A stretch of 42,847 bases of DNA, taken from IMG/VR virus record IMGVR_UViG_3300035698_004247, positions 1 through 42,847 of that record; one strand, written 5' to 3'. The notes beneath the pieces are model-generated. The model searched no databases. It was not told the origin of the DNA and saw nothing but the letters and a program-made list of their open reading frames with translations. This document shows positions 8,852-31,700 of the stretch, in pieces. Every line of letters begins with the position of its first letter. Position 1 is the stretch's first letter. Made by a program: the position numbers and the translations under genes. This DNA comes from a virus.

Positions 8852-8926
8852 GGGAACAGACGAATCGACAAACAGTGGTGGTTGAACTGAACACCGCAGT
8901 AAGCGGCTCGAATGAGAGGTATCCAT

Positions 8927-11900
8927 ATGGCTTTCCCAGGTAGTGCATACGCCCCCCCCGGAACTTACACTCAGACCAAGCAAGGCAGCCCTATTGGGGT
9001 CTCGCTAGAAACCCTCAAGATTCCGGTATTTGTCGGAGAGGGCAGCGAGTTGCTGGTTCAAGAGGACCTGGAAATGGTTCGAGGCTCGTCCTCAACCATT
9101 GATCAGCGGCGTGTTGATGAAGACATGTCGGGACGTGCTGTTGTCAGTATTTCCCAGGCTGGTCAGGTGACTCTTGGGAACTTTGATGGGGTCTTGACCA
9201 AAGTCCAAGTTCGTAACTACCCACTTGTAACAGGTGACGGCACTGGACGTACCACCAATAGTAGGGGTGACGTAAGTGTCACTCTTGATGGTGAGCCCAT
9301 AGTTGTCCGCTCTGTTGTAGGGGCTACCGGTATCGTCGAGTTGGCACAGGCCCCGCAGCCTAGCCAAGTCGTGCTGGTAACATCCTTCTTCAACAGGACT
9401 GATACCTTGATTACGGATGACCTGTCAGACCAGGTTGACCCTGACCCGGCAGTCATTCAGGGTGCCTCTGGTATTCTGGACACCGATTCTCCAGGTAGTG
9501 TTGGTGGTGGTAGTGGCACCGCTGCGGTGCTGGACTTCCACGGGGATATCACGGACGCCAATGGTGCCGTGGTCGTGGAGAGCAATAATATCCTAAACCT
9601 GACGGTGGACAGCACCGACTATCCAATTGTTATCCCGCCCCGGGTTGACTACACGATGGCTCAGGTGGCCGCAGCGATTACCGCAGCCAATGTGGGAACC
9701 CTGACGGCTTCTTCCTTTACTAACAACTATGGGGCCTCTGCATTGCTCCTGAACGCTGATCATAGCATTGTGGTCAATGAGGGTACGGCTAATGGTCTGC
9801 TAGGGCTCCTGACGGGGCAGGCAGATGCACGAGTGGCAACCTTCTACACCTTCCAAGGACCCATCGTTGATGGTTCCAATGGTGGTGTGGCGACCACGGA
9901 TCCTTCCCACATCACAGTTAAGGTGAATGGCACGCAAGTTATCCCCACGAGTGTGGTGGGCACAACCCGTGCGGTGGCTCTGACACAGGCTCCCAAGGCA
10001 TCCTCCACAGTCACGGTCACTTACTACTTCAATGCGTGGCAGGACACCTTCGATTACCTTGCCCACATTAACATCCAGAGCGTGACCCGCTGTGGGGACG
10101 TTCCCGGTGGTTCTGGGTACACACAGGAAACTGATTTCATCCTTCAGGATGACAAGATTCTGTGGGGAACCGCAGCTACTATTGAAAGTGGTGCAAACTC
10201 TGTGGGCTCAGAGCGGTTTGATGATACACAAATCACCGCAACCCTGATCGACAATCAGACGTTCCTGTCGGTTTGTACCCCAGTCACTACCAGTAGCGGT
10301 GGGACTTCGGTAGCAAGCAAGACTTCCTTCCAGCTTCCCCTTTCCCCGACTACGGGTAACGGTCGAAACACCCCGTTGGGTAGCAGCCTGTTCCAGACGG
10401 TGAGCAACGGTCGTATTGACCTTCCCACCAATCGTCCTGACTTGGTCAAGGCGTACTGGGGCTTCGATGTGCAGGATGCCCTGGATAGAGGTCCTGTCAC
10501 AGTCACAAAGGTTGAGGATACGGTCATCACTCTGGATGAGGTCGTTCCAGTAGGGGCTGTGGTTTACGGTTCCTTCTACTACAACCAGCTTACAGACAAT
10601 GTCTACACGCTGACTTGCGTGAATCCTGGGATGTCTGGCACGGGTACATACTCTGTGGCAGATAAGGCTGGGGAGGACGTTTACGGTCCGTTCTTTGATA
10701 ACAGCACCAAGGGCTCAAACCTTATCGGTGTTACCGTCGAGTTCCCCTCTGGTTCCGAGTTGAAGCCTGATCTTCGCTTTGAGAGCGTGTCTGGTGATGA
10801 CTTCTCTGGTCCAGTTGAGGAAATCGTGACCGTAGAGTTCGGTAGCAAGGTAGCTACGCCCGCCAAGTACTCTGTGGCTGGTTATGGGCCTTATTCCTTC
10901 ATTCCTGACTATTCCGACCATCTCCGCATTCAGGTGCGGAGCAATGAGATTACGAACAGTGCTGGTCTTGACCTGATGAATCCTTCGGGGCATGACTCGG
11001 GATTTTTCGCCAGCCTCGTGGGTGATGAGATCAATTACACGGGTGGCACCGTGGGCACCGTGGGTGAATCCTATGATGTTACGACTTCCGAAGAGTTCAT
11101 TATCTCTACGGATGGTGTAGATGTTCCTGTGAAGACGGGGACAGCCAACGACGTGGACATTAGCTTCTTCTCTGATGCCATCAACGAGGCCGCAGGTGGT
11201 CACGGTGGTTTGGCAACAGGTGGTGGGGCAGCCACAATCACCCTTGAAGTAGCCAGTCGTTCTAATGTGACCAATGCTTACGTTGGTTGGCGAGTGGTCT
11301 TGGGTAACGGTGGTGCTGGTACCGCAGGTGAGACCAGGACAATCTCTGCCTACAATGGAACAACCGGTGTGGCGACTCTGAGTGCCATATGGACGGTTGC
11401 TCCGGTCAACACAGACCCTTACCACATCTACAATCCAGTCAGTCGGGCTGCAATGACTTCTGCAACTGCCTTTGATGGCCCAGTCACTCTGGCAGCAGGT
11501 AGCCATGACAAGTTCCACCTTGCCTTTGTTGGTGACACCAGTGGAGCAACAGGTGCAATTACAGCCGACTTGGGTGACGGTCCTTTCGCTACCCCGAATG
11601 CTCTGGCAACAGAGGTTCAAACGCAGGTTGCTGCTGCCGTCGCTCTCATAGTGCTCGGTAGCCCTGCACACGCAGGTCTTGTTGTTGAAGTTGTAGCCAA
11701 TGCTGATGCTAAGTTGGAATTCCGTATTCAGCTTCCAGGTGTCGATGAGACTGGTTACCTTCAGTTCCTCAACGCTGCCACAGATGCAGCGGACTTCAGT
11801 GTCCTCGCAGGACTGGATACCGCAGCAGCAGCGGGTGGTGGGCAAGCGGCTCTCGTTCAGGGTCCCATTGCCAGAACTTACGAGGTTCCCGCAACGGGTT

Positions 11901-14224
11901 CTACGAAGGCTTATGACCGCCTTATTCTTCGCAGCCGTTTGCTGCCGGGTAATGGTGGCTCTCTGTATCCCGAACAACTCGTGGCACAGACGGGCCTAAC
12001 GATCAAATCCAGTAATACCAAAGCGGGTCTTGCTACGGGTGACTACGGCACAGCCGGTGCAGTAGCAACCGTCAGAGCAGCTACGACTGTTGGTCACCTT
12101 GGATTCTCTGGGGGGATGAACGCTAGTGCTGAACCTCTGGTTACCTTCTACGATGGTACTGGAACCGTTTCGGCTAATGATGAGTTCTCCTTTGAGATTG
12201 ACGGGATTCCCGTCACGGTGAGCTTCACCTCTGTAGCGGCGGGCACAGCGACCCCGCTTGGACCCGTAAGTGGTGCGAGTAACGGGTCGATTCTTGACCA
12301 GATCATTGATGCTATCGCAGCCGTTCCAGGAGCCCCCTTGGGCAACGCAGCTACCATCTTTGCAGACGGGGTTGTGAGGCAGGAAGGTACGGGCATCAGG
12401 CTTGTTTCCCAGCGGTTCGATAGTACAAGCCGTATCACCATGGGATCGGGAAGCGCCAACAGTGCTCTTGGGTTCTCCGGTGGTGGAATCTTCTTGAGGG
12501 TTCAGCCTACAGCACGTCTGACAGCCAGTGCTTTGATGGCAAACTTCAACCTAGGGTCCTTCTCTGGTTGGATGGCCAATACACTTCAGAGTGCTACGAC
12601 CATCTTTGCTAATGTGGCTATTGCCAGCATTGAGATTGATGCAGCAGGGCAAGAGTACCTCTACTTGCAGGATGCTCCTGTCATCGTGGGTAACTTGGGT
12701 GCTTCATCGACAGTGGCACTGCTAGACACCTTCCAGAGTATCGCCAACGCTTTACGCTATGACACGGGCTTGGGGGTTACTTCTGGTGACGGTGGTGTAG
12801 GAGAGGCCGCTCTGGATGGTTTCTTCGTTATCTCTTCAAACCCCAACGGTTCGGGGTCGGTGGATGAATCAATCCTGAACAACGGCACAGGCCAAGACGG
12901 TGTGGTTGGACAGACCTACCGGGATGAGGTGACAGGCTTGACCTTCACCATTCTCCCGAGAGGTTGGGCGTCTAACCAGAATGGTCCTTGGGTCAGTTAC
13001 CCAACTGGTGGTAATGCTACGTTCCGATTCAACGTCACTAAGACCTACACCTGTGACGCCAACATCCCGCACAATGCGCTGCCGGGGTTGGAGCTTCGGG
13101 TAGACAACACGGTCAACGTCGCCATTGGGGACACGAGCCTCGTGCAGTCCTTCGAGCGTGGGGGTGTGGAACCGGCTATTGGTGACCTTTACTACGTGAC
13201 CTACAACTACACGAAGCCTAGCTTTGAGACTGCTTTCTTCACGAAGGTGTCTGCCATTGAGGAAGCTTACGGTGCGGCTACTCCAGATAATCCGGTTAGC
13301 CTTGCCGCATACCTTGCCATTATCAATGGTGCGGTTCTTGTGGGCATCAAACAGGTGCAGAAGGAAGAGGATTCGGAGCAGGCTAGCTTGGCTACTTACC
13401 GAGCAGCTATAGGAGAGTTGGAGGGTGTCCTTCCGGGTCAGGCACAGCCAGACATCATTACGCTACTGCGGGGTGATTCGACGGCCTTGTACCAGATCCT
13501 TAAGAAGTCGAATGATATCCAGTCCAGTATCCGATACAGGTCGGAACGTACCAGCATCGTGGGTACTTCTGCCGGAACCACTCCTGAGCAAGCAGGGGTG
13601 ATGGCACAGACCTTGGGTGCCGCACGTATGCGGCTTGTGTATCCTGACATGGCAGTCCTTACCCTCACGGATAACTTCGGGAACTCTCGTGAGGAGTTGA
13701 TTGACGGTACATACATCGCCGCTGCTTTGGCAGGGTCGGTGGTGAGCCCGAATGTTGATGTGGCAACTCCATGGACAGGGCGTAAGTTGGTTGGGTTTAC
13801 CCAGCTTGGACGCACTATGGATGCGGTACAGCAGAATGTGGTGGCAGTCAAGGGTGTGACGGTCATGGAAGGCCGCCCACCGTTCCTCAGGGTTCGCCAC
13901 GGTCTGACAACCGATATGAGCAACATCCTGACGAAGACGCCGACAGTCATCCAGATTGCCGACGAAGTCCAAAGGCAGGCACGAGGCACCCTGGATAACT
14001 TCATTGGGATTAAGTTCTTGCCAGGTATCTTGTCACAGATTGAAGGTCGGCTGGCCATGATGATGAAGGGCCTTGTACATGCCAAGATCATCGCTGCTTA
14101 CCAGAACATCAAGGCGAATATCTCGGCAGACGATCCTACAACCGCAGAAGTAGAGGCTTACTGGGCACCAGTTTTCCCACTTTTATACATAATTCTTACG
14201 TTCCATCTTCGCAGTAGTTTATAA
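8927..14224 (+). CDS. Giant tail sheath protein with repeated inserted domains
   Basis: 1765 aa from the ATG at 8927 (SD GAGAGG, 7-base spacing; an ATG at 8912 overlaps that SD). The N-terminus P-P-G-T-Y-T-Q-T and the C-terminal ~245 residues (I-Q-S-S-I-R-Y; G-R-K-L-V-G-F-T-Q-L; W-A-P-V-F-P-L-L-Y-I near the end) match contractile sheath proteins, which polymerise round the tube and shorten to drive injection. Between them lie insertions. One beta module (V-x-V-x-G-x-x-V, then V-x-L-x-Q-A-P, then V-x-V-x-Y-x-F-N) occurs at about residues 117-157 and 329-369, and more loosely at 505-555. A second type resembling flagellin-hook IN motifs (strand pair, helix Q-V-A-A-A-I, then a short turn ending A-N-x-x-L-G) lies at about 221-295, 860-970 and 1080-1185. 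The inserts would decorate the sheath surface. At 1765 aa it is far longer than the usual 350-700. Confidence 0.85.
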   Translation: MAFPGSAYAPPGTYTQTKQGSPIGVSLETLKIPVFVGEGSELLVQEDLEMVRGSSSTIDQRRVDEDMSGRAVVSISQAGQVTLGNFDGVLTKVQVRNYPLVTGDGTGRTTNSRGDVSVTLDGEPIVVRSVVGATGIVELAQAPQPSQVVLVTSFFNRTDTLITDDLSDQVDPDPAVIQGASGILDTDSPGSVGGGSGTAAVLDFHGDITDANGAVVVESNNILNLTVDSTDYPIVIPPRVDYTMAQVAAAITAANVGTLTASSFTNNYGASALLLNADHSIVVNEGTANGLLGLLTGQADARVATFYTFQGPIVDGSNGGVATTDPSHITVKVNGTQVIPTSVVGTTRAVALTQAPKASSTVTVTYYFNAWQDTFDYLAHINIQSVTRCGDVPGGSGYTQETDFILQDDKILWGTAATIESGANSVGSERFDDTQITATLIDNQTFLSVCTPVTTSSGGTSVASKTSFQLPLSPTTGNGRNTPLGSSLFQTVSNGRIDLPTNRPDLVKAYWGFDVQDALDRGPVTVTKVEDTVITLDEVVPVGAVVYGSFYYNQLTDNVYTLTCVNPGMSGTGTYSVADKAGEDVYGPFFDNSTKGSNLIGVTVEFPSGSELKPDLRFESVSGDDFSGPVEEIVTVEFGSKVATPAKYSVAGYGPYSFIPDYSDHLRIQVRSNEITNSAGLDLMNPSGHDSGFFASLVGDEINYTGGTVGTVGESYDVTTSEEFIISTDGVDVPVKTGTANDVDISFFSDAINEAAGGHGGLATGGGAATITLEVASRSNVTNAYVGWRVVLGNGGAGTAGETRTISAYNGTTGVATLSAIWTVAPVNTDPYHIYNPVSRAAMTSATAFDGPVTLAAGSHDKFHLAFVGDTSGATGAITADLGDGPFATPNALATEVQTQVAAAVALIVLGSPAHAGLVVEVVANADAKLEFRIQLPGVDETGYLQFLNAATDAADFSVLAGLDTAAAAGGGQAALVQGPIARTYEVPATGSTKAYDRLILRSRLLPGNGGSLYPEQLVAQTGLTIKSSNTKAGLATGDYGTAGAVATVRAATTVGHLGFSGGMNASAEPLVTFYDGTGTVSANDEFSFEIDGIPVTVSFTSVAAGTATPLGPVSGASNGSILDQIIDAIAAVPGAPLGNAATIFADGVVRQEGTGIRLVSQRFDSTSRITMGSGSANSALGFSGGGIFLRVQPTARLTASALMANFNLGSFSGWMANTLQSATTIFANVAIASIEIDAAGQEYLYLQDAPVIVGNLGASSTVALLDTFQSIANALRYDTGLGVTSGDGGVGEAALDGFFVISSNPNGSGSVDESILNNGTGQDGVVGQTYRDEVTGLTFTILPRGWASNQNGPWVSYPTGGNATFRFNVTKTYTCDANIPHNALPGLELRVDNTVNVAIGDTSLVQSFERGGVEPAIGDLYYVTYNYTKPSFETAFFTKVSAIEEAYGAATPDNPVSLAAYLAIINGAVLVGIKQVQKEEDSEQASLATYRAAIGELEGVLPGQAQPDIITLLRGDSTALYQILKKSNDIQSSIRYRSERTSIVGTSAGTTPEQAGVMAQTLGAARMRLVYPDMAVLTLTDNFGNSREELIDGTYIAAALAGSVVSPNVDVATPWTGRKLVGFTQLGRTMDAVQQNVVAVKGVTVMEGRPPFLRVRHGLTTDMSNILTKTPTVIQIADEVQRQARGTLDNFIGIKFLPGILSQIEGRLAMMMKGLVHAKIIAAYQNIKANISADDPTTAEVEAYWAPVFPLLYIILTFHLRSSL

Positions 14225-14867: not shown

Positions 14868-14874
14868 AAGGGAA

Positions 14875-17344: not shown

Positions 17345-17405
17345 GGGTGTCTCCTTTGCGATGGTTCTTCTGAACGCCATTGGTGTTCTTTACCCTAATG
17401 TGCAA

Positions 17406-17469: not shown

Positions 17470-17495
17470 TATTAGAAACAACTAAGGAGATTCTC

Positions 17496-17927: not shown

Positions 17928-17957
17928 AGTAAGGGAAGAATCTTGCAAGGAGTTCCC

Positions 17958-18155
17958 ATGGAAAAAGTCGTGATTCGAGCTAGTTACAATGGTGATAATC
18001 CTTCAGAAGAGACCTTGGCTAAAGTCAGGGCTAAGATCATAGAGGTCGTCCAGAAGGATCTGGCGATGTCTGAAGAGGAACACAAGGAAAGCTTGAAGAA
18101 GCCTACCTTGTGGCCTTTTGACCCGATTAAGAAAGTTGGAGAGGAAAAGATATGA
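17958..18155 (+). CDS. Small charged hypothetical protein
   Basis: 65 aa from the ATG at 17958 behind AAGGAG. It starts with a strand (V-V-I-R-A-S-Y) and continues with a long helix (E-E-T-L-A-K-V-R-A-K-I-I-E-V-V-Q) and a Lys-rich tail. It overlaps the next start as ATGA. No family recognised. Confidence 0.5.
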   Translation: MEKVVIRASYNGDNPSEETLAKVRAKIIEVVQKDLAMSEEEHKESLKKPTLWPFDPIKKVGEEKI

Positions 18156-18400
18156 CAGACAAAGAAAATCCTACAGGGGCAGCACGTTATGCATCCTCTA
18201 GCCTTAAAGTTGGGGATGTTGTGGAACTTATGAGTGGTGGTCCTATGATGACCGTTACGGGTGTTGAGAGTGGGGATGTTTCATGTGACTGGTTTGCCGG
18301 TCTTGACGCGATGTCCGAGAACTTTATACTCGCCGCCCTTCAGGTTGTCCCTGCGGAGCAGGTCAAAGCCGGACTAAATTCTTTGAGGGCAAAGCTTTGA
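18152..18400 (+). CDS. YodC-like (DUF2158) small protein
   Basis: 82 aa; coupled to the gene before it. Residues 18-65 fit the YodC/DUF2158 pattern: L-K-V-G-D-V-V-E-L, S-G-G-P-M-M-T-V, then V-S-C-D-W-F and a later F-I-L-A-A-L. The family is a small SH3-like beta barrel common in proteobacteria and phages; its role is unknown. The match covers all the invariant positions I know, so the family is fairly sure. Confidence 0.7.
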   Translation: MTDKENPTGAARYASSSLKVGDVVELMSGGPMMTVTGVESGDVSCDWFAGLDAMSENFILAALQVVPAEQVKAGLNSLRAKL

Positions 18401-18615
18401 TAACTCCCCCCATCGGAGTCGGCGGTGTTGTGTCCCACATGGTGTGGTCAAGCAAGGAGCCCCGTAGCAGGATGCCCCTAGACAAGTTAGTGGAGGGCCT
18501 TCTGAGGCGCTTTGATACTAAGGAGACTGTGGTAAGGTTGGCCATTCACATAGCGAAGGTCTGCGGGACTATTACGGTTTCTGAGGGGTTTGTGAGCCTT
18601 TCTGTTGGACGTTGA
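18397..18615 (+). CDS. Small hypothetical protein, TTG start
   Basis: 72 aa from a TTG at 18397 that overlaps the previous stop (TTGA), with GAGG 8-9 bases upstream. It contains a helix with K-L-V-E-G-L-L-R-R-F and a C-terminal strand region. No better start exists before codon 15. The stop codon is part of the terminator hairpin. Function unknown. Confidence 0.45.
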   Translation: MITPPIGVGGVVSHMVWSSKEPRSRMPLDKLVEGLLRRFDTKETVVRLAIHIAKVCGTITVSEGFVSLSVGR

Positions 18616-18640
18616 TTATGCCAGGGAAAGCCCTGTCAAC
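18611..18640. terminator. Hairpin between convergent genes
   Basis: CAGGG, AAAG loop, CCCTG (18622-18635) extended by GTTGA/TCAAC (18611-18615 and 18636-18640) across a one-sided 6-base bulge. It lies exactly between the ends of the plus and minus operons and probably stops both. Confidence 0.5.
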
Positions 18641-18656
18641 ACAGTGATCAATAGCT

Positions 18657-18992
18657 CTAACGAGTTCCACATTGAGGGGGGGTGTGATTGACTTCCCTTT
18701 TCAGGTGTGCATGGATCTTTGCTAGGAACTTCTCTGCTTCTTGCCATTCCTTGATGGTAATGGTCCCGTCCGGTATCATGGGATGCATTGCAGAAAAGAT
18801 TACCTGGCCATCTGTGCATAGGGCGTGTACTCCAGTGCAGGGGTTGAAGCGTAAACCGGTGGCACATAATTCCCCAGATACAATTTGCGTGTCCCTTACC
18901 GTTGAGACCACGGGCTTTTCTTGTCCACCACAGCCGCTTAGAGAAACAGCACCCCAAAAGATGCCCACTAATACTGGCAATAGACGTTTCAT
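18657..18992 (-). CDS. Lipoprotein with type II signal peptide
   Basis: 111 aa; ATGA overlap with the NUDIX gene and AAGGAG upstream. Residues 1-20 form a signal peptide: M-K-R-L-L, a hydrophobic core, and a lipobox L-S-G-C with Cys20 as the lipidated residue, followed by G-G-Q. The mature part (~90 residues) has three further Cys (two near C-A-T-G and N-P-C-T-G, one near the end) that could form disulfides in the periplasm. Phage lipoproteins include Rz1-type spanins and superinfection-exclusion proteins. Spanins are usually shorter and Pro-rich, and no partner i-spanin is adjacent, so exclusion is the better guess, but it stays a guess. Confidence 0.65.
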   Translation of the reverse strand: MKRLLPVLVGIFWGAVSLSGCGGQEKPVVSTVRDTQIVSGELCATGLRFNPCTGVHALCTDGQVIFSAMHPMIPDGTITIKEWQEAEKFLAKIHAHLKREVNHTPPQCGTR

Positions 18993-19375
18993 GTTGCATA
19001 CTCCTTAATGAGCTTCTTTGAAATGGGGCCTGTGTTTTCAGGCATATCCTGTGCATTGAACCACCCGTAGGCATCATGTTCCCATGACACGACTACTTGT
19101 CCAGTGGCTACGACCTTGAGCTTGAAGACATCTATGAGAGTACCCGACTCTTTTTGCTGAAGGATGTGTTCATAGGAAAAAGCTCCTAGACCTGATTCCT
19201 CTTTCAGTTCCCTCCTAGCAGCATCCTTTGGGGCTTCATCCTCATCAACCATACCACCTGGTATGGCCCAGATGCCTGCTTCAGTAGGGGCAGTGGGACC
19301 TCTGCGAAGCAGCAGGACTTTACCTTCTTCATTGAGCACAAGGGCAAGGGCCGCTCGCTTCTGTGTGTCTTTCAT
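18989..19375 (-). CDS. NUDIX hydrolase
   Basis: 128 aa from the ATG at 19375 (AAGGAC upstream), one base after the RNA ligase stop; the frame continues upstream but inside the ligase gene. The NUDIX box G-x5-E-x7-R-E-L-x-E-E-S-G-L is complete at about residues 37-60 (G-G-M-V-D-E-D-E then R-R-E-L-K-E-E-S-G). The core strands on either side (A-L-A-L-V-L-N-E-E-G-K-V-L-L-L-R-R-G and W-A-I-P-G-G) are intact, so it should be active on a nucleoside diphosphate linked to X. The substrate cannot be read; MutT-like dNTP, NAD or capped RNA ends are the usual options. Coupling to an RNA ligase makes an RNA-related substrate attractive. Confidence 0.85.
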   Translation of the reverse strand: MKDTQKRAALALVLNEEGKVLLLRRGPTAPTEAGIWAIPGGMVDEDEAPKDAARRELKEESGLGAFSYEHILQQKESGTLIDVFKLKVVATGQVVVSWEHDAYGWFNAQDMPENTGPISKKLIKEYAT

Positions 19376-19376
19376 G

Positions 19377-20432
19377 TTAGTCCTTTTCTTTGGAGAGGTA
19401 TTCAGGGCTCCGTTGCTTAAGGAACATTCGGTGAAGGCCCCCATCAAAGGACCCCATCAGTTCTTCCATGGTCTTCACCACGATACCCTCACGGCGAGTT
19501 TCAGGGCGCAGCACACTATGACCATTGCTAGCTTCTTGGAGGGTCCTTCCATTTAACCACTCTCGTAAAGTAATGCCAGAGGCCAACACGGGAACTCGAA
19601 GGCATTCTGGTAGATACCCTACAAATTGCTCAGGGGGGAGGTAATCCCGACCCACCTGAAGATCAAAGAACCTGAACTCAGTGTGGATACGCCTGTAAAG
19701 GTTCTTGCGGATACCCGGCCCAATAAGCTCCCCTCGCAGCACTAGCTGTTCGTCGGGGAAGGCTTGAGCCAGGTCCTTTAGGATGTCAGGAACACCCATG
19801 CTGCGGGCGGTGTCACAGTAAACATTTGCCTTACCAGGGATTTCCTCAATCCGGTTCTGATGCTGGCAGAAGTATATCTCACCATCTACTGTGCGGACAG
19901 CAGCAAAGTTGGAGCCCTCAAGCTTCTCTGTCACATGGACGGTAATGTCCATCATTTGTTGTGCAATGTCAGGGAAGCGGTCGGCTCCTTCAATGTTATA
20001 GACACCCACGCTGTCTGGCAGGGCATATAGGATACAGTGTCCTGTGTCGTTTGGGGCAGGTTCATACTTTTCTACACCCAAGTGTTCAGTCAAAGCATCA
20101 GCAGAGAGGTCCAGCCCTTCCCAATGTTCCCCCAGAACAGTCTCAGGGCGACAAACGAGCCCTTGGCTCACCTGTCCACGCAGCTTGACCGTTTTGATCC
20201 GGTTGCAGTCCTTGCCTGAAAGTCTGCCTACGAGCCCTAGCTTTTCGATCACAGGCACAGGTAGCAAGCTGTCTACGGGGAAGTAGAGAACTTGTTCACC
20301 GGCTTGGTGGGTGTCTTTGAGGACAACAAACTGAAAGTTCATCCCCTTTACCTTGGCAAGGTCCAACCTGTCTGCATTGGGATGTGCCCAGACTTTTTCT
20401 AGCTCTTCTAGTGTTACGCCGAAGAATGCCAT
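19377..20432 (-). CDS. RNA ligase, DraRnl (Rnl5) type
   Basis: 351 aa. Residues 1-120 form the N-terminal OB-like domain typical of Deinococcus RNA ligase: H-P-N-A-D-R-L near 17-23, F-P-V-D-S-L-L-P near 51-58, and R-I-K-T-V-K-L-R-G-Q-V-S-Q-G near 78-91. The nucleotidyltransferase core follows, with motif I E-K-L-E-G-S-N (Lys170 is the adenylated residue), R-G-E-L-I-G, F-F-D-L-Q, motif IV E-G-I-V-V-K-T and motif V L-K-Q-R-S-P-E-Y. DraRnl enzymes seal 3'-OH/5'-phosphate nicks in RNA with ATP, and phage versions may repair RNA cut by host defence. All motifs are intact. It heads a three-gene operon with NUDIX and lipoprotein. Confidence 0.88.
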   Translation of the reverse strand: MAFFGVTLEELEKVWAHPNADRLDLAKVKGMNFQFVVLKDTHQAGEQVLYFPVDSLLPVPVIEKLGLVGRLSGKDCNRIKTVKLRGQVSQGLVCRPETVLGEHWEGLDLSADALTEHLGVEKYEPAPNDTGHCILYALPDSVGVYNIEGADRFPDIAQQMMDITVHVTEKLEGSNFAAVRTVDGEIYFCQHQNRIEEIPGKANVYCDTARSMGVPDILKDLAQAFPDEQLVLRGELIGPGIRKNLYRRIHTEFRFFDLQVGRDYLPPEQFVGYLPECLRVPVLASGITLREWLNGRTLQEASNGHSVLRPETRREGIVVKTMEELMGSFDGGLHRMFLKQRSPEYLSKEKD

Positions 20433-20466
20433 ATCATATCCTCATTCTAAAAGTTATATGGGGGAG

Positions 20467-21276
20467 TTAGTTTCCCATCACCCAGCCAAGAGTTCTCTCC
20501 CCAACAGGGATAACCATCTCTAAGCCGTTTTGGTAAGCATCCCTGATGCCCACCGTTAATAGATTGGGATCCTCTTCCATCCAACCTTTCTTGGCCGCCA
20601 CCCAAACCATAAGGGCGGCCCTGGCGGCCCTGGTGTCCCCGGCGTCCCAGGCGGCACAGGTGTTCTTGGCGGCCCAGGTGTTCTTGGTGGTCCTGGCGTT
20701 CCAGGCGGTCCTGGCGTTCATGGCGGCCCTGGCTTTCCATGTGTCCCTGGCGGTCCAGACACCTAGAAGATTATTTACAGAATCGAACTCCTTGAGTTCC
20801 CAATCATGGAGACCTCTGGCATCCAGAGCCTGTCGGAGCCCTTGCTGGACTTTTTCAGGGTCCTGCACAGGCCGGGACAATGCTTCACGCCACAATAGAA
20901 CCTCTTTGGTTAACTCCTTTTTGAGAAGATTCCCGAAAGGTTTATGCATTTTGAGCAGGAACGGTTCAATGTCTAGGATCTCTTCTGTGATAGTCCAAGA
21001 AGAGGATCGGATCTTATTTTCCCGTTTAAAGACTTCTTCGTTGGTCTCGACTCTAAAGAGTCTTGACGGACGCCCACTAGGCCACAGCCCTGCGATGCTC
21101 AGTGCTACGTGTGCCTTAAGGCAAGCGTTCCACCCTGCACCGCACTCCTCATCAGAAGGATCTACTTCCACGGTAGGGAGCGTGTAAGGGAGCGTACCGT
21201 CCCATACAGGCTCACCACCTCGGATGGGAGACCTAAGATCGTGAGTGAAGACTTTGTAAGCTTTAGTAATGAACAT
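20467..21276 (-). CDS. DUF7666-like protein with Ala-rich three-residue repeats
   Basis: 269 aa; AAAGGAA upstream of the ATG at 21276. The first ~100 residues match a phage family that I recall as DUF7666: [34 protein letters not shown], and a K-I-R-S-S segment. Residues about 170-220 are a run of triplets of form x-(A/T)-(R/W/K), encoded by an imperfect 9-base repeat, and should form a long helix. A C-terminal G-L-E-M-V-I-P-V-G closes the protein. Function unknown. The C-terminal domain after the repeat is only ~45 residues. Confidence 0.55.
20614..20757 (-). repeat. Imperfect 9-base repeat tract inside the DUF7666-like gene
   Basis: About 16 consecutive 9-base units of form GGCGGCCCT / GGTGTTCCT (plus-strand view). 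In the minus coding frame they give Ala/Arg/Trp/Lys triplets; on the plus strand the same bases would read as Gly-X-Y. The composition is much richer in G+C than the flanking sequence. Confidence 0.75.
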
Positions 21277-21294
21277 GCCAAATTCCTTTGTTTG

Positions 21295-21717
21295 TCAGCC
21301 TGGATCTGCGAGGCCCATGATACAGTTGCCCCCACTTCCGCCTGCCATGGGGTTTCCTGCGTACCTAGTGTAAGGGGAGTGTCCTGCTCCTCTAAATGGC
21401 CTAGGCTTTTCCCGACGTTGTAGATGAAGACCATAGTCTTTCAAGGCACCCACGATTTCTCGATGTGAGAGTTTCAGCCTGCGGTTCAAGCAGTTTAGTT
21501 CCTGATAGGTGTAGGAATCTCTCTCATCTTCCATTAGGGATTCAATGAATGTTTCTAGAGACTCGAACTCAGGAAACTCTGGCTTGAGATCCCCAAATCT
21601 CCAGTCTGGGGTCTCGTAATCGATTTCCTCATCCCTAGCCTTACGACGTGCGGCACGCTCTTCTATCTTTTGTGTCTCTCTGTCCTCGTTATATGGGACA
21701 TACTTGAAGCGAGCCAT
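21295..21717 (-). CDS. Hypothetical phage protein with Gly-rich C-terminal tail
   Basis: 140 aa; start at 21717 with AGGAGGTG directly upstream. The N-terminus is highly charged (E-E-R-A-A-R-R-K). Residues about 60-100 resemble a helix-turn-helix (Y-Q-E-L-N-C-L-N-R-R-L then S-H-R-E-I-V-G-A-L). The last 35 residues, with R-G-A-G-H-S-P-Y-T-R-Y-A-G-N-P and a G-G-S-G-G-N near the end, match a short motif that I recall at the end of uncharacterised proteins in many tailed phages. Its SD lies in a 10-bp hairpin with the upstream promoter-like element. Function unknown. Confidence 0.6.
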   Translation of the reverse strand: MARFKYVPYNEDRETQKIEERAARRKARDEEIDYETPDWRFGDLKPEFPEFESLETFIESLMEDERDSYTYQELNCLNRRLKLSHREIVGALKDYGLHLQRREKPRPFRGAGHSPYTRYAGNPMAGGSGGNCIMGLADPG

Positions 21718-21758
21718 ACTTCACCTCCTACAGGCACATACAACCCGAAGGTGAAGTA
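21717..21758 (-). promoter_or_regulatory. Hairpin that would sequester a Shine-Dalgarno
   Basis: Arms 21717-21726 and 21749-21758 are perfect 10-base complements (AGGTGAAGTA on the mRNA side, covering SD and the A of the start codon) with a 22-base loop. The loop contains the CGGGTTGTAT box. A transcript begun at that box would lack the upstream arm and be translatable; a read-through transcript would be folded shut. Confidence 0.5.
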
Positions 21759-21768
21759 GGCTAAGCCT
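21738..21768 (-). promoter_or_regulatory. Bipartite minus-strand element, copy 4
   Basis: AGGCTTAGCC, 11 bases, CGGGTTGTAT on the minus strand, 21 bases before the start at 21717. Both boxes are identical to copy 1, although the 11-base spacer differs, which argues that the boxes and not the spacer are selected. Confidence 0.55.
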
Positions 21769-21818
21769 AGAATGGATGCACAATGCAGGGAAAGGTGTGG
21801 TGAGGGTTTGGGGGAGGG

Positions 21819-22010
21819 CTACCAGGACTTCTGATCCTCAAGGATTTGCTTGCGGATCAGGTCCATGCTCTTCTTGCACTCCTGAAGTGTCTTGCGGATC
21901 CGGGGCCCTGCGGCCTTCTGCTTCTTGACATCATGCTTTTCCGCATCACCTTCGAGGTCTTGCAGTTTGGCGATGAGGTCTTCGATCCGGCTCTGGATGT
22001 TCGGTGTCAT
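21819..22010 (-). CDS. Histone H1-like (Hc1 family) nucleoid protein
   Basis: 63 aa; start at 22010 with AAGGAG upstream. Residues 1-20 form a helix (I-E-D-L-I-A-K-L-Q-D-L); the centre K-Q-K-A-A-G-P-R-I-R-K-T-L-Q-E matches the core of small bacterial and phage histone H1-like proteins (K-A-A-G-x-R-x-R-K-x-L-x-E), and a basic helix with I-R-K-Q-I follows. Members bind DNA and are found in chlamydiae, Bacteroidetes and phages. It is transcribed divergently from the MerR gene. Family likely; the role (DNA compaction or host nucleoid change) is inferred. Confidence 0.6.
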   Translation of the reverse strand: MTPNIQSRIEDLIAKLQDLEGDAEKHDVKKQKAAGPRIRKTLQECKKSMDLIRKQILEDQKSW

Positions 22011-22105: not shown

Positions 22106-22129
22106 TTATCAGAAACTTGACAGTAGTAG

Positions 22130-22158
22130 TTGACAGAACGTGACAGTTCTAGTATCGT
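22130..22158 (+). promoter_or_regulatory. Sigma70-like promoter with MerR-type internal dyad
   Basis: TTGACA (22130-22135) is a perfect -35; 17 bases on is TATCGT as a -10. Between them AGAAC (22135-22139) and GTTCT (22146-22150) form an inverted repeat with 6-base spacing, which is where MerR-family regulators bind. The gene it serves is itself a MerR family member starting at 22188, so autoregulation is likely. The -10 matches only 4 of 6 positions, and classic MerR promoters have 19-20 base spacing, so details are uncertain. Confidence 0.55.
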
Positions 22159-22187: not shown

Positions 22188-22628
22188 ATGACTTACAACC
22201 TAACCGAACTTGCCGAGAAATCAGGCACCACAGCACGGACGATCCGTTACTACATCTCACAGGGGCTTTTGTCCTCTCCTGTGGGAAAGGGTCGTACCGC
22301 ACACTACACAGAGGATCATCTGAAGACCCTAACCAGGATCAAAGGAGGTAAGGAACAGGGTCTTCCATTAGAGAACATCCAGAAGCTGCTTGACCAACTG
22401 GAGTTGATGGAGAAGGACCCTGACCACACCATCATCCTTCCTTTTTCCTTTGACTATGATTTTTCAACTCCTCAATGGAAGCTAAAGGGGGAGCCTCCAA
22501 GGGCTTCTTGGACAGCTTACGAGGTGGATAAGAATATACAAGTCATGGAACGAGTGGGGATCAGCCCCGACAAACACGCTGCCCTTATGAAGTCCCTTAG
22601 GGTATTCAAAAAAGAACTCACAGAGTAG
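22188..22628 (+). CDS. MerR-family transcriptional regulator
   Basis: 146 aa from the ATG at 22188 (GAGGAA upstream); an upstream in-frame start lies inside the promoter. Residues 3-70 are a MerR winged helix-turn-helix: Y-N-L-T-E-L-A, T-A-R-T-I-R-Y-Y-I-S-Q-G-L-L, G-R-T-A-H-Y-T-E-D-H-L, and the helix G-L-P-L-E-N-I-Q-K-L-L. The C-terminal ~70 residues carry no Cys pair for metal and no long coiled coil, so it is not a heavy-metal sensor. The T-R-I-K-G-G segment is the usual dimer helix lead. It is transcribed just before the VIT-VWA gene, 11 bases apart, from a promoter with a MerR-style dyad. Confidence 0.85.
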   Translation: MTYNLTELAEKSGTTARTIRYYISQGLLSSPVGKGRTAHYTEDHLKTLTRIKGGKEQGLPLENIQKLLDQLELMEKDPDHTIILPFSFDYDFSTPQWKLKGEPPRASWTAYEVDKNIQVMERVGISPDKHAALMKSLRVFKKELTE

Positions 22629-22639
22629 GAGACCAACCC

Positions 22640-25063
22640 ATGCCACAGATTATGCCAAACCCTTTGCACGGCAACGTGCTCTTGGATGCACAGACCCGGC
22701 AGCCCATTGCCCTTTCTATGCAGCACCTTCATTTGGCCGGTCAGGTGAGCCCCGCAGGAGCACTTCTGCGATCCACCCACCGGTTCAAGTGTTCCACAGA
22801 CAAGCCCTTGGAGGCGTTGTACGTCTTTATGCTGCCTCGTAACGGAACACTTCGTCGGTTCATTGTTAAGGGGGAGGACTTTGAGATTGAGTCCAAGTTG
22901 TCCCCCAGAGAGGATGCTCGTAAGGAATATGAGCAAGGCATCGACAATGGGCACCTCTCCGTTCTGGCTGAGACCTCTTCGGATGGTCTTGTGACTTTGT
23001 CTGTGGGTCAGGTAAGGCCCGATGAAGAGATCACAGTCATTGTTGATGCCATCTCTGGGGTGGACGTGAAGGATGAATCCTTCCGTTTCCGCTTCCCCTT
23101 TACGTTGGCCCCGTCCTATCATGCACAGGCGAAAGTCACTCCGACAGGTAAGCTCGAACTGCCTGAGGACATCTTCGGGGATATCCTCCTTCCCGACTGG
23201 AAGTCAGGTACGAAGGGCCTTCACCAGATTTCCTTTCAGATGAAGATGGAGCCAGGTGGCACGTTGGGGACGGTGTCTTCACCCTCCCACCGGATTAGTG
23301 TGACCCCGAATGACGATGGGTCTGCCACGGTGGAGATGGCTTCGGATATGGAGACACCAAACCGGGATCTTGTTATTGATGTGTCTGCAAGGGAAGCTGT
23401 CCCAACATTGTTCGTGGATAAGATGGTAGACAAGAAGCTCCCCAAAAAGGCACCTCATTGGACTGCTGTGGTTCCATCGAATGCCCTTCCGAAAGCACAG
23501 GGTGCTCCTCGGAGAGTGTGTTTCCTTGTGGACACTTCGGGGTCTATGCGGGGAGTTCCCTTGGAGCGTGCTAAGGCGGCTCTGGATGCCATGTTGGCGG
23601 GCCTAGATCCAAAGGATGAGTTTGGCATTGTCCGCTTTGGGTCTACTACGGATGTTTTTGACAGGAAGATGGCTACCGCTACGGAGTCCAATCGCCGCTT
23701 GGCAAGGAAGTGGCTTGAAGCACTGAACACTAATGGTTGTACGGAACTTGCTAAGGGTCTTGGGGAAGCTGTTGAGGTTCTTGGTGGTCCCGGTGGAGAC
23801 ATCTTCCTGATGACTGATGGGCAGGTCTTCGGTACAGGCCCGATCATTGAGCAGGCATCTGCTGCGTGTTCCCGAATACATGTCCTTGGGATCGGGGCAG
23901 CTTCCCAGGATCGCTTCTTGGCCTCTCTGGCTCGCCGCACAGGTGGTGTGAGTGAGATGGTAGGAGTGCGTGAGGATGTGGCTAGCATGTCCTTGAAGCT
24001 CTTCAGTGCTGTCCAGCAGCCCGTACAAGTGGATGTGACAGCTACCATTGGCATGGGAGGCAAGAAGAAGGGTCAAACGCAGGACGTTGGGACCGTGTGG
24101 GAGGGTAAGTCCATCCTCTTGACTGATAACGGTGAGACGAGCCTGAACCGACCCAAGAGCATTACCTTCAATTGGGCAGGTGGTTCCGTCAAGGTGGACA
24201 TTGCACAGGTTTTTGAGACTCCCCCAGGTCTCTCTGCTCTTTTGTGGGCAGGTGGACAGATTGAGGATTTGGAGTCTACGAGGGACATGGGTCTGGGAGG
24301 TCCTGTCCAAAAGGCAGCAGAAAGAGACCTCAAGGAGATCTCTTCTACCTACGGGCTTGCAAGTCGGGTCATGTCTCTGTGTGCCGTGATTGAACGCATT
24401 GGGGATCAGAAGGGTGAAGAGGTGCAGCAGCAGATCATTCCTGTGGGGATGCCTGAAGACATGAGTCAAGATGTTCAGGTTCCGTTCTCGGGTCGTATTG
24501 GCAGCAGGGGGCTCTCAACCTGTTTCCTGTCTGCGGTGAGCACCAGCTATGAGAGCACTGGTCAGGATCTCGGAAATGATCTCTTGGTTGGGTGCAGTAC
24601 TTTGGAGGATTCCTTTGCCCCTTCCCGTGGTGTATCTAATGTCAGGCATCAGAGTCCTGGGGTGGAGGCTTCAACAACGTGGGTTCGTGAACATCGGGTA
24701 GGGTCCGCTGATCTTTATGAGAGGGCCAAGAAGAAGGTGGATGCATCCAATTCTACTACTCTCATTAGTAGTGTGACCCTTCTCATGGAGGATGGTGGGA
24801 TGCCTGGGAATGACGAGGAAGCCCGCCTTGCTACAACTGTTCTTCTGGCATTGTCATGCTTGGAGATGGGTGAGTTGTTCGCTCATCATCTTCGTCGTAT
24901 GGCAGACTACATTGAGAACAGTGGCCGCTTCCCAATGGTGGTTGAGGCAATTCGCAAGCAGTCTCCCAATAAGGCTGAAAGGTGGGTGGATTTGTTTAAG
25001 AAAGCCTCAGTGGGCAATCTTACTAATGATGAAACCTTCCTGAAGATCTCTGCTTCTTTCTGA
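22640..25063 (+). CDS. VIT domain plus VWA domain protein
   Basis: 807 aa; AGGAG 8 bases before the start. Residues about 20-140 match a VIT domain (S-T-H-R-F-K-C, Y-V-F-M-L-P, Y-E-Q-G near 97, G-L-V-T-L-S-V-G-Q-V). A VWA domain at about 290-460 has an intact MIDAS: D-T-S-G-S-M at 298-303, T368 in G-C-T-E-L, and D393 in L-M-T-D-G. Metal-dependent ligand binding is therefore likely. The C-terminal 300 residues include segments typical of VIT-VWA proteins (a helix with A-E-R-D-L-K-E-I-S-S-T-Y-G-L-A-S-R-V-M-S-L near 555-575) and a helical tail. No signal peptide or membrane span is seen, so it should be cytoplasmic. Such proteins are known in animals, amoebae and many bacteria; in a phage beside a MerR gene it is unexpected. 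Confidence 0.85.
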   Translation: MPQIMPNPLHGNVLLDAQTRQPIALSMQHLHLAGQVSPAGALLRSTHRFKCSTDKPLEALYVFMLPRNGTLRRFIVKGEDFEIESKLSPREDARKEYEQGIDNGHLSVLAETSSDGLVTLSVGQVRPDEEITVIVDAISGVDVKDESFRFRFPFTLAPSYHAQAKVTPTGKLELPEDIFGDILLPDWKSGTKGLHQISFQMKMEPGGTLGTVSSPSHRISVTPNDDGSATVEMASDMETPNRDLVIDVSAREAVPTLFVDKMVDKKLPKKAPHWTAVVPSNALPKAQGAPRRVCFLVDTSGSMRGVPLERAKAALDAMLAGLDPKDEFGIVRFGSTTDVFDRKMATATESNRRLARKWLEALNTNGCTELAKGLGEAVEVLGGPGGDIFLMTDGQVFGTGPIIEQASAACSRIHVLGIGAASQDRFLASLARRTGGVSEMVGVREDVASMSLKLFSAVQQPVQVDVTATIGMGGKKKGQTQDVGTVWEGKSILLTDNGETSLNRPKSITFNWAGGSVKVDIAQVFETPPGLSALLWAGGQIEDLESTRDMGLGGPVQKAAERDLKEISSTYGLASRVMSLCAVIERIGDQKGEEVQQQIIPVGMPEDMSQDVQVPFSGRIGSRGLSTCFLSAVSTSYESTGQDLGNDLLVGCSTLEDSFAPSRGVSNVRHQSPGVEASTTWVREHRVGSADLYERAKKKVDASNSTTLISSVTLLMEDGGMPGNDEEARLATTVLLALSCLEMGELFAHHLRRMADYIENSGRFPMVVEAIRKQSPNKAERWVDLFKKASVGNLTNDETFLKISASF

Positions 25064-25127: not shown

Positions 25128-25207
25128 CCGCTCTATCTCTCCTTTCCTGGGGTTCGTTGGACTGCCTATAAAGCCCCTGTGATGAGGAGAGCTTATAGGA
25201 GGTTCCC

Positions 25208-26101
25208 ATGGCGGATGCTAATGCACAAACCAGACCCACCAACACCGACAACGCTGCTGATTCAGGTGTCGGTGGAAAGTCGTACCTTTACGACTTTGGT
25301 ACGTCCCCCAACACTAGGACTGCGGTGTCACAGAAGGTGAGGATTCTTACTCCTCACTATGGAAATACGCAGGCAATGCATCAGATGGGCGTGCTCAGTA
25401 CGTTCAGTCCGACCCAGAGCCGTACCATTGAACCGGTACGTGGCATTGGGTTTGGGGATCAGATTGCAGAACTGGTCCCGTGTGTGACTGAACCTACCAC
25501 AGGCAACTTTGAGAGAGCCTTGCTCTATCTTTGCAACCTGTGGCAGGCTGCTGGATATGCAGCGGGTGTTGACGGTCCTGTCAGATCGCTGGCCCATCAT
25601 CGTTGGCCCTTCGATATCGAGCAGCAGTTGGTCTTTTCGACGCTGGCCGATATGGACATGGGTGTAGCAAACACAGGTCTCGGTGGTGAGCCTGGAACTT
25701 TCCAGGGTGGCACCAAGGCCATTGAGTTCCCGCAGGTCACTACGGACTCAGGGACTGGCGACTATGTCGGTGGGGTACCTGACGCAGGGGCAAACCCGGG
25801 TAGAGGCCACAGTGCCGTTATCACTATCTATGAGGCTTGCTGGTTCAACCAGTGGGCAACATCCTTCGTAAAAGATGCTGGGGTGATCATGGAGTCCGGT
25901 GATGTGACTATTTCGGATGTCCACGACTTCGCTAGTGTTTATGGTGAGTTCCTAGCAACAGGTAATGACCCGACAGTGGGCCAGTTGGGTTCCATCCGCT
26001 TTGCAGAGGCCGGGTCCATTACACAGGCAGGAACTGGTGTGACCGGTGGCGGGACAACCTCCCTCTTCGCTCAAGGTGCCTTGAATGAGACAACCGCCTA
26101 G
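25208..26101 (+). CDS. Tail tube protein
   Basis: 297 aa; ATAGGAGG directly upstream. Family segments I recognise from jumbo-type phages are R-T-I-E-P-V-R-G-I-G-F-G-D-Q-I-A-E-L-V-P near residues 74-93 and A-L-L-Y-L-x-N-L-W near 105-113, followed by G-P-V-R-S-L-x-H-H-R-W-P-F. Tube subunits stack as hexamers inside the sheath and are ejected into the cell. The C-terminal 50 residues are Gly/Thr/Ala rich. It starts the second half of the tail operon, but the sheath gene that would normally precede it is 11 kb away. Confidence 0.8.
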   Translation: MADANAQTRPTNTDNAADSGVGGKSYLYDFGTSPNTRTAVSQKVRILTPHYGNTQAMHQMGVLSTFSPTQSRTIEPVRGIGFGDQIAELVPCVTEPTTGNFERALLYLCNLWQAAGYAAGVDGPVRSLAHHRWPFDIEQQLVFSTLADMDMGVANTGLGGEPGTFQGGTKAIEFPQVTTDSGTGDYVGGVPDAGANPGRGHSAVITIYEACWFNQWATSFVKDAGVIMESGDVTISDVHDFASVYGEFLATGNDPTVGQLGSIRFAEAGSITQAGTGVTGGGTTSLFAQGALNETTA

Positions 26102-28723: not shown

Positions 28724-31700
28724 ATGCCCCCTTCTGCCAATGATATTATCGTTCGAGTTATCCCAGATATTCAAGCATCTGGTGGGGCTCTTTCTTCACA
28801 ATTCAAAAAGATCGCTGCACCGATCCAAAAGGTTGTGGGCGATGCTTTGGCGAATGCCTTGGACTCATCCTTCTCCCCACGGGAACTGAATAAGATTCAA
28901 AAGCGTATGGCCAACATGCAGGTGGAAGCGGTCAAAGCTCGTGAGGTGGCTGACATCAAGGCGAAGGCTATTGAGAAACGGCTGCGGAAGAAGAACCTGG
29001 ATGAAGAACAGAAGAACAAACTCAGGAATGTCAAGCAGCAGGCAAATTTGGAGGCCAAGAGTCTAGAGGACAGGCTTAAAAAAGAGGCCACCCACGTTAC
29101 AGTGCAAGCCGCAAGGAGCAAGAAAGCTCTGGAAGCACTGGGTGGGAATCTGACCAAGCTTTCAGTAGCATCCGCAGAGAAGTTTGGAGACTCCTTGTCC
29201 GCAGCTTTCTCTGACATTACATCGGGAGAGCTTGGCAACATGACTTCTCTTCTCAAGAGAATGGGGGAGAAGACAGAGGAGGCGGGGTTAAGGCAGCAGG
29301 CTAAAGCAGGTACGGGTAAGGGTGGGGCAATGCAGTCCAAGATGGGCGAGTTCTTCACTAAAATGGGTCCCGCCATCATAGCCATTGCAGGCATTGCAGC
29401 GGGTCTTGCTGCCATTGTGAAGATCATCATTGATGCAGACTCTGCGGGCAAAGAGTTGAATCGGACTCTGCTTGAGGGGGGTGTGTCTGTCCTAGACATG
29501 AAAGCAGGTCTCGGAGAGGTGGGGGACCGGCTGAAGGAGATCCAGAATACCTTTGCTGGAAAGGATGCCTGGGACTTCAACCGTAAATGGGGGACAACCG
29601 CCAAAGACCACTATGCGGTTTTGACAGCCCTCTCGGATGCCGGTGTCACTTTTGAAGAGCTTACAAAGAATGTAGCGGACAACTCCAAGGCTCTTCAGGA
29701 TGCATCAGGGAAAGTACATACCTACGCCAAGCTGTTGGGCATGACCACCCAAGAAGTAGCTACGAGCATGGGTGAGTATATGGAGGAACTCGGCCTTTCC
29801 ATTGCAGGGATTTCTGAAAGGTTTAGCTCTCTGGCAATGGCAGCACAGCAGTCCGGTTTTAGCACCAAGCGTTTTGTAGGGATGGTGCTCCAAGCTACTT
29901 CCGGGATGTCCATGTACAATGTCCGGTTGGAAGAGACTGCGGCACTGTTGATTAAGCTCGGGGGCATTCTGGGAGAGAAGATGGGGGGTGACTTCCTTGG
30001 AGATCTCATGGGAGGCTTCAAGGGAGAGTCTACACAGGACTTGACCAAACGGGTCATGAACACTGGTCCGAATAGGGCTGAGGACATAGGCCGTGGAGCG
30101 TCTAAGAAGCATCTGGCGGACTTAGGCAGAAAGGTTGCAGGTCTGGATGACGATGCACAGGTTAGGATGCACCGCTATATGAAGGAAGCGGGTCTGAAAG
30201 AAGGTATTGAAGGCTTCAAAGATCCTGTGGCGTTGGGGAAAGCTTTGGCAAAGGTCCCCTTGGCTGTGAAGGATACCCTTGTGGCAAAGGTAGGTGCCTT
30301 GAGTGCAGGTATCGGCAGAGACCTCGCCACGGCTTGGGAAAAGTCCTTGGTACATAAGGGGACCCGTGGGGGCACTGTGGCCGCTGTGGGGGCTATGGCC
30401 GGTCCTGAGAAGCTTCTGATGCAGCTATACAGTGCTGCTAAGGTACTGAAGGGTAAGCGGCTGGATCAGATCAGCCCCGACGATCTTACGAAAATGATGG
30501 CTGCCGAAGGGGTCTCAATGTCCCGAGAGGAGCTAATGAAGTTCAGTAGGGTCGGGGGACAGTTTAGTGGCCAAGAGGCTGTCATTTCGGCTCACCAGAA
30601 AAAGATTCGGTCGGAAAAAGATCCCGCAGAACAAGCGAAGTTGATTAAGCAATACAACGAGGAGTTTGGCAAATCTTTCGGGGTCTATCTTGATAAGTCT
30701 GGTGATCGGTATCGGATGGTCACAACGCAAGACGGCAAGGAGATCCAGGCGAAGTTAGATGACGGTTATAATGCCTTGGTGCTGGCTTTGGGGGAGGAGT
30801 TCCTCAAGGCTGGTGACAAGGGGCTTACCGGGGATGAGAAGATTGCCCAAGAGGTTGCCTTCCAGACTACGGACCTCATGAAGTTCATGGAGCAGGGCCT
30901 TGAAGTGCTCTTGACGGAGATCCGCAATTGGACTGAGAAGATCTACTATGCCATGCCGTGGACGGATACGAAGCTAGAGGGAAAAGACAAAGTGGCACAG
31001 GAGGAGGCCGTTTTAGGGATCTCTGAAGAAATCAAAAGGCTGAGGGGTGCCCAGAGCGGTGATATGAAGGAGGCCGGAAAACTGCGTACACAGGCTCAAA
31101 GAACAGAAGATGAGGGGGAAAAGGCTACACTTTTGGCAGAGGCTAAAAGGCTTGAGGAACAGGCAAGACGACGTAGCCTGAGAGTCGAGAACCTACAGGA
31201 TCAAAAGGCTAAGATACTCACAGCAGATACCGTGGAGGATGTTGAAGCTAGGGGTGGTGCCGGGTCCGCAGGTACCTATAAACGGTTCGGGGCACTTTCC
31301 AGGCCCAACATTGAGAAGATGGGCAAACTCTTGTCCCAGGAGAAGGGTGTCCTTGGTGAGGAATACATTAAAGAGAGGGATGCTCACCGGGGCAAAACTT
31401 CTGAGGAATACTCTAGGCGAATAGCTGCAAAGAAGCGGGAAATTGCTGTGGAGGGGGAGCAGACCGGATATAGCCTTCCTGAACTTCGGGGTGAGTTGAG
31501 GGCTCTCCAGGAAGAGGCTAAAGCTGCAATGTTTGTTGCAGATGAGTTTGTCCAAAGTAAGTTCCTAGACCCCGAGTACCAGAAGGAAATCCTAGATTCT
31601 GCTAATAGGAAGTCAGAGAAGCGTGAGGATGCAAAGAAGCCTAGCGATATGCGAAAGGCTGCTGTTATTACCGAGGAGGTACGAGAAAGGGCAGCAAAGA

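What the first reader, a model, noticed from the sequence alone, without database searches (positions are those of the whole stretch)
22188..25063. MerR regulator plus VIT-VWA protein in a phage
An intact VIT domain and a VWA domain with full MIDAS are rare in phages. Paired with a MerR regulator and its own promoter, this is a self-contained two-gene unit, perhaps a moron acting on the host. VWA proteins often assemble complexes or partner ATPases, but none is adjacent here.
Basis: partly seen in the sequence, partly recalled or inferred. Interest (0 to 1): 0.75.

Follow-up and report, generated by a model that had tools for sequence, protein, structure and literature searches.

The report
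Self-regulated MerR–VIT-VWA cargo in huge phages
Some very large bacterial viruses carry, between two tail genes, a removable two-gene unit also found in a few bacteria: a DNA-binding regulator with a conserved, probably self-controlling switch, and a metal-site binding protein of the blood-protein ITIH and vault PARP4 type, whose job is unknown.

Summary
MerR (22188-22628) and VIT-VWA (22640-25063, complete MIDAS) are real and lie in the tail cluster of a huge-phage fragment. The pair sits between the tail-sheath gene and the tail-tube gene. It recurs in at least 24 other IMG/VR contigs and in rare chromosomes (Acidobacteriota, Lentisphaerae, a deltaproteobacterial MAG, one actinomycete), always with MerR directly upstream. 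It behaves as a portable unit: near relatives have clean empty sites, the tube gene keeps its own different promoter, and several loci have a hairpin terminator after VWA. A shared element, CTTGACA(G/C)TG with repeated GACA(G/C)T, overlaps the -35 box of MerR in 25 of 26 loci, phage and bacterial. The -35/-10 spacing is mostly 16-18 bp, so MerR is best read as an autorepressor rather than a classical spacer-type activator. MIDAS residues are invariant; no signal peptide or membrane segment was seen. The 'moron' reading is supported architecturally; action on the host is untested. Most likely it is an autoregulated cytosolic MIDAS adaptor carried as dispensable cargo. It is not a virion part and not a MoxR-VWA or sortase system. 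The target is unknown. I found no published description in the library searched.

The parts
22117..22148 (+). Putative operator array: TTGACAGT (22117-22124), TTGACAGA (22130-22137), TGACAGTT (22141-22148)
   Evidence: CTTGACA(G/C)TG / repeated GACA(G/C)T element, conserved upstream of MerR in phages and bacteria; also in Nonomuraea
22130..22158 (+). sigma-70-type promoter of the cassette (TTGACA, 17 bp, TATCGT)
   Evidence: spacer 16-18 bp in 22 of 25 loci
22188..22628 (+). MerR-family regulator, 146 aa; HTH plus C-terminal beta-hairpin and helix instead of a metal loop
   Evidence: PF13411 E=1e-18; homologue starts; AlphaFold model pLDDT 86
22640..25063 (+). VIT-VWA protein, 807 aa, complete MIDAS, no signal peptide or membrane segment, disordered linker 599-703 and C-terminal helical domain
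   Evidence: PF08487, PF13768; alignment; MIDAS and hydropathy; model pTM 0.77
25154..25172 (+). Separate promoter-like motif of the tail-tube gene (TCGTT-N5-GCCTATAAA), shared with a relative that lacks the cassette
25208..26101 (+). Tail-tube-like protein, downstream anchor of the insertion site; conserved in at least 110 IMG/VR contigs
   Evidence: tube role inferred from position after sheath
21819..22010 (-). Small 63-aa gene, upstream anchor of the insertion site (present in the empty-site relative L008)
   Evidence: window 21818-21976 matches L008 9539-9694
8912..14224 (+). Tail sheath (C-terminal about 350 aa) fused to a very large N-terminal part; upstream border of the variable slot
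   Evidence: phrog_2839 tail sheath E=1e-31

Best explanation
The locus is a moron-type cargo cassette: a self-contained, MerR-controlled two-gene transcription unit inserted between the sheath and tube genes of a clade of huge contractile-tailed phages. It is a phage branch of a bacterial MerR-VIT-VWA operon. MerR most likely represses its own promoter by binding repeated GACA(G/C)T sites that overlap the -35 box. When repression is lifted, host RNA polymerase makes MerR and, by translational coupling in most loci, the VIT-VWA protein. The latter is a soluble cytosolic adaptor that uses its metal-ion site (MIDAS) to grip a host or phage protein. By analogy with HspR/DnaK (from memory), the VWA protein may itself feed back on MerR. 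Shown by sequence: the pairing, the conserved element, the insertion and its absence in relatives, the invariant MIDAS. Inferred: MerR binding to the element, repression, ligand binding. Speculative: the feedback and the target.
For: MerR lies directly upstream of VIT-VWA in every phage and bacterial locus, usually with an ATGA stop/start overlap. CTTGACA(G/C)TG occurs in 18 of 26 MerR upstream regions and essentially nowhere else in about 895 kb (both strands) of the same loci. In a 435-kb phage record the double site occurs once, at this promoter. The spacer is 16-18 bp in 22/25. The same element precedes a divergent Nonomuraea MerR-VIT-VWA pair, while sortase-type VIT-VWA genes lack MerR. 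Empty sites: window versus L008; L025 versus L017 (5806-9055 replaced by 74 bp); L025 versus L019. The tube gene has its own promoter-like motif; hairpin-T terminators follow VWA in L022, L028, L029, L110. MIDAS invariant; dN/dS 0.15-0.19 in most phage pairs.
Against: No binding, expression or phenotype data. No clear hairpin-T terminator follows VWA in the window itself. L038 lacks a clear element. Cassette occurrence is clustered in one part of the tube tree, so it is not hopping freely. Morons are classically defined in prophages, and lysogeny is unknown here. The feedback idea rests on analogy only.
Confidence: 0.68

Rival explanations
1. The pair is a conflict module: MerR senses stress or infection and the VIT-VWA protein blocks competing phages or neutralises host defence (superinfection exclusion, anti-defence).
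For: Accessory, hypervariable location; decays and is lost repeatedly. VWA proteins serve as peptide-binding co-chaperones in MoxR conflict systems (PMC7159879). In L092 a MoxR-type AAA gene and an ADP-ribosylglycohydrolase flank the bacterial pair. MerR's HTH scores against PADLOC mad1.
Against: No PADLOC hit for VIT-VWA. The mad1 match covers only the common HTH. No MoxR or other shared third gene in other loci.
Confidence: 0.25
2. MerR is a classical activator sensing metal or redox stress, and VIT-VWA is a stress protein.
For: MerR HTH resembles CueR, SoxR, PbrR and CadR.
Against: 16-18 bp promoter spacing rather than the 19-20 bp of classical MerR promoters; element overlaps -35 instead of lying in the spacer; C-terminal region is a beta-hairpin plus helix without a conserved cysteine loop.
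Confidence: 0.12
3. VIT-VWA is a tail component or tail-assembly factor.
For: Directly upstream of the tail-tube gene in nearly all phage loci, same strand.
Against: Absent from many relatives with the same tail genes, including the closest (80% tube identity); different promoter type from the tube gene; homologues in bacterial chromosomes that lack tail genes next to them.
Confidence: 0.07
4. A largely selfish, homing-like cassette; some MerR copies carry a GIY-YIG nuclease-like domain that could drive its spread.
For: T5orf172/MUG113 GIY-YIG fused to MerR in L022 and by sequence in L013 and L029; single fixed insertion slot; clean empty sites.
Against: Most copies, including the window's, lack the nuclease domain; VIT-VWA is under purifying selection; no target repeats seen at junctions.
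Confidence: 0.06

Closest known systems
Phage morons (cargo units with own promoter and terminator)
   Same: Own promoter, terminators in several loci, inserted between conserved genes, absent in close relatives
   Different: Found in huge phages of unknown lifestyle, carries its own dedicated regulator, same slot each time
Inter-alpha-trypsin inhibitor heavy chain (ITIH1, 6fpy) and PARP4/vault VIT-VWA
   Same: VIT followed by VWA with MIDAS; Foldseek E=5e-31 to ITIH1, sequence E=8e-12 to PARP4
   Different: No signal peptide, no ART domain, extra C-terminal helical domain, prokaryotic operon
Marine proteobacterial sortase target proteins (TIGR03788)
   Same: VIT-VWA core, 218 bits
   Different: Far below the 551.65-bit cutoff; the family's examples sit beside a class GN sortase without MerR
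MoxR-VWA chaperone and ternary conflict systems
   Same: MIDAS VWA as candidate client-binding part
   Different: No MoxR ATPase beside it in phages or most bacterial loci
HspR autorepressor (MerR family)
   Same: Autoregulated MerR-type gene in an operon; weak sequence match
   Different: Different operator and different C-terminus; partner is VIT-VWA, not DnaK; co-repression untested
VIT-VWA proteins of giant eukaryotic viruses (Terrestrivirus, Fadolivirus, Tupanvirus)
   Same: Full-length structural match, E 1e-34 to 1e-40
   Different: 15-18% identity; eukaryotic hosts; MerR link not examined

Membership tests
Phage moron | Own promoter independent of neighbouring phage genes | tested here: met
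   Conserved sigma-70-type promoter and operator-like element; tube gene has a different promoter-like motif
Phage moron | Own terminator | tested here: inconclusive
   Hairpin plus T-run in L022, L028, L029, L110; strong hairpins in L050, L051; none clear in the window
Phage moron | Inserted between genes that are adjacent in relatives | tested here: met
   Three empty-site comparisons
Phage moron | Not needed for phage growth; alters the host | not testable with these tools
   Absence and decay in relatives suggest dispensability only
MerR family | MerR-type HTH | tested here: met
   PF13411 67.7 bits against cutoff 21.6
Classical metal/redox MerR activators | 19-20 bp promoter spacer with operator inside it, and a ligand loop | tested here: not met
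   16-18 bp in 22/25, element on -35; no conserved metal loop
VIT-VWA proteins | VIT domain, VWA domain, complete MIDAS | tested here: met
Marine sortase target protein TIGR03788 | Score above family cutoff, class GN sortase neighbour | tested here: not met
   218 against 551.65 bits; no sortase found in the window
MoxR-VWA systems | Adjacent MoxR AAA ATPase | tested here: not met
   None in the window; only weak AAA_5 hits in a 435-kb relative, far from the pair; one bacterial exception, L092
HspR-like feedback circuit | Partner protein acts as co-repressor | not tested
   Analogy only

The most novel reading that the evidence does not exclude
A previously undescribed regulator-effector system shared by bacteria and huge phages: a MerR autorepressor whose activity is set by its partner, a cytosolic MIDAS protein, so that titration of that protein by its clients switches the operon on. 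This would be a chaperone-style sensing circuit built on the VIT-VWA fold, carried by phages as cargo.
Probability: 0.2. Interest if true: 0.75.

Novelty: new variant of a known kind. Interest (0 to 1): 0.56.

Why it matters
It defines a compact, testable MerR-VIT-VWA system with a specific predicted operator, found in several bacterial phyla and carried by huge phages. VIT-VWA proteins also occur in giant eukaryotic viruses and in the human vault and ITIH proteins, yet the role of cytosolic prokaryotic forms is unknown. A two-gene unit with a clear promoter makes that question directly testable.

Tried and rejected
(1) Single-sequence scans of viral contigs and phage records found no relative; the family appeared only by walking from the conserved tube gene and then with an alignment. 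(2) A link between the VWA protein and the volactin-like actin (3344-4369): rejected as unsupported, because volactin occurs in phages without the cassette. (3) Acidic C-terminal tails of MerR as MIDAS ligands: set aside, because these codons overlap the ribosome-binding site of VIT-VWA and may be acidic for that reason. (4) A conserved third partner gene in bacteria: all-against-all comparison of flanks gave only the pair; L092 alone has a MoxR-type AAA. (5) The dyad AGAAC-N6-GTTCT at 22135-22150 looked like a MerR operator in the window but is not conserved; the GACA(G/C)T repeats are. (6) The 700-870-aa genes in the same slot of other phages are not divergent VIT-VWA; they carry HTH, MucR zinc-finger, methylase-like or NUDIX domains, or nothing recognisable. 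(7) Other sites for this MerR in a 435-kb phage record: only its own promoter found. (8) Literature: no paper pairing MerR with VIT-VWA in the library searched.

Full report
What is there. The window is a 42.8-kb virus record from the tail gene cluster of a huge phage. Its tape-measure protein (28724-32101) and the 808-aa protein at 39463-41889 match the 485-kb record LR745208. The tail-tube-like protein at 25208-26101 matches at least 110 IMG/VR contigs, some over 400 kb, and the cultivated 309-kb phage Tunturi_5 of an acidobacterium (PMC11924767). MerR (22188-22628) and VIT-VWA (22640-25063) pass the Pfam cutoffs easily.

Conservation of the pair. Local searches of the tube loci found VIT-VWA in 21, each with a MerR gene directly upstream, placed between sheath and tube. 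An independent scan with the VIT-VWA alignment gave 22 loci, three of them on new contigs. All of the newly fetched loci have MerR, and all but one truncated contig show the tube gene, so the position is not an effect of searching by the tube gene. Seven bacterial loci came from genome contigs and two more from genome sampling. All have the same MerR upstream. The family is rare in bacteria: 4 of 297 genomes in the phylum of the Bryobacterales hit, 1 of 284 and 1 of 289 in two other phyla. The phage and bacterial VIT-VWA proteins form two well-separated groups (100/100 support), with one deltaproteobacterial MAG gene (L089) inside the phage group. That gene has an ABC transporter next to it, and no tube homologue was found in its genome, although that search had no positive control. 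It suggests at least one transfer between phage and bacterium; the direction is not shown.

The control element. Comparing the regions upstream of MerR showed a striking shared element, CTTGACA(G/C)TG, often with one or two further GACA(G/C)T copies 10-13 bp away. TTGACA(G/C) is found in 25 of 26 loci against 0.4 expected in random segments, and the longer form in 18 of 26 against 0.1. The longer form is essentially absent elsewhere in the same loci. The surrounding DNA looks unalignable between phages and bacteria, so this is selective conservation. The element extends the -35 box, and a -10 box follows at 16-18 bp in 22 of 25 (the choice among equal -10 matches slightly favoured this range). 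Classical MerR activators use 19-20 bp spacers with the operator inside (from general knowledge), so an autorepressor is the better reading. A diverged pair in Nonomuraea, found through a plasmid-collection search, carries TTGACAGTGTAATAGTGACAGTGTCA upstream. Sortase-type VIT-VWA loci have no MerR.

Cargo behaviour. The window and its closest relative L008 share the small gene at 21819-22010 on the left and the tube promoter-like motif (from 25149) on the right; L008 has about 200 bp where the window has 3.1 kb. L017 lacks exactly the MerR-VIT-VWA part of L025 (5806-9055, replaced by 74 bp) and keeps the neighbouring PLD gene; L019 lacks the cassette plus part of that gene. L023/L024 and L026/L027 carry large internal deletions in VIT-VWA while MerR stays open. 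The tube gene has its own motif (TCGTT-N5-GCCTATA), shared by some phages with and some without the cassette and not accompanied by a TTGACA box (the CTATA core is seen in 28 of 61 tube upstream regions against 1.5 in random segments). Hairpin-T terminators follow VIT-VWA in four loci. On the tube tree, presence and absence need at least five changes.

The proteins. The VIT-VWA MIDAS residues are invariant in all intact homologues, phage and bacterial. Hydropathy shows no signal peptide and no membrane segment, so the protein is probably cytosolic. The AlphaFold model (pLDDT 75, pTM 0.77) matches ITIH1 and full-length proteins of giant eukaryotic viruses. dN/dS is 0.15-0.19 in most phage pairs compared and higher in one phage pair (0.47) and one bacterial pair (0.36). 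MerR has a normal HTH; its C-terminal part is a beta-hairpin and helix with no metal loop, and its role is unknown.

Reading. The data fit a moron-type, self-regulated cargo unit. They argue against a virion protein, a MoxR-VWA system and a sortase substrate. What the VIT-VWA protein grips is not shown. A feedback circuit in which it controls its own MerR is attractive but speculative.

Limits. IMG/VR contigs are metagenomic; some are near-duplicates. Counts from sampled genomes depend on the sample. The bacterial scan used short patterns and undercounts. Function, host and lifestyle were not observed.

Noticed in passing
window 3344-4369: Full-length match to the archaeal actin family Volactin (PF25216, E=3e-70); homologues in 13 related loci, in the same tail-side gene cluster. 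A phage-encoded actin of this family may deserve its own study.
   Followed up: partly
window 8912-14224: Tail sheath domain is only the last about 350 aa of a 1770-aa protein; the long N-terminal part is of unknown role and conserved in relatives.
   Followed up: no
window 2548-3351: Vsr/DUF559-type endonuclease with an N-terminal C2H2 zinc finger, homing-endonuclease-like, not found in the related loci fetched.
   Followed up: no
L013 6489-7211, L022 6663-7346, L029 6590-7279: MerR of the cassette is fused to an N-terminal GIY-YIG (T5orf172/MUG113) domain.
   Followed up: partly
L089 7544-10322: Deltaproteobacterial MAG copy nested inside the phage clade, next to an ABC transporter gene: phage-bacterium transfer.
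   Followed up: partly
L092 6497-12469: In a Lentisphaerae MAG the pair is flanked by an ADP-ribosylglycohydrolase gene and a MoxR-type AAA ATPase gene.
   Followed up: partly
L138 4078-7358: Nonomuraea MerR-VIT-VWA pair with the same operator-like element, suggesting an actinomycete branch of the system.
   Followed up: partly
window 14225-22010 and the same slot in L013-L076: The sheath-tube interval is a hypervariable cargo slot (RNA ligase, MucR-type zinc-finger/methylase proteins, PLD nuclease).
   Followed up: partly
L023 7102-9005, L026 8388-9076: Independent internal deletions in VIT-VWA while MerR stays intact, each seen in two contigs from different metagenomes.
   Followed up: partly
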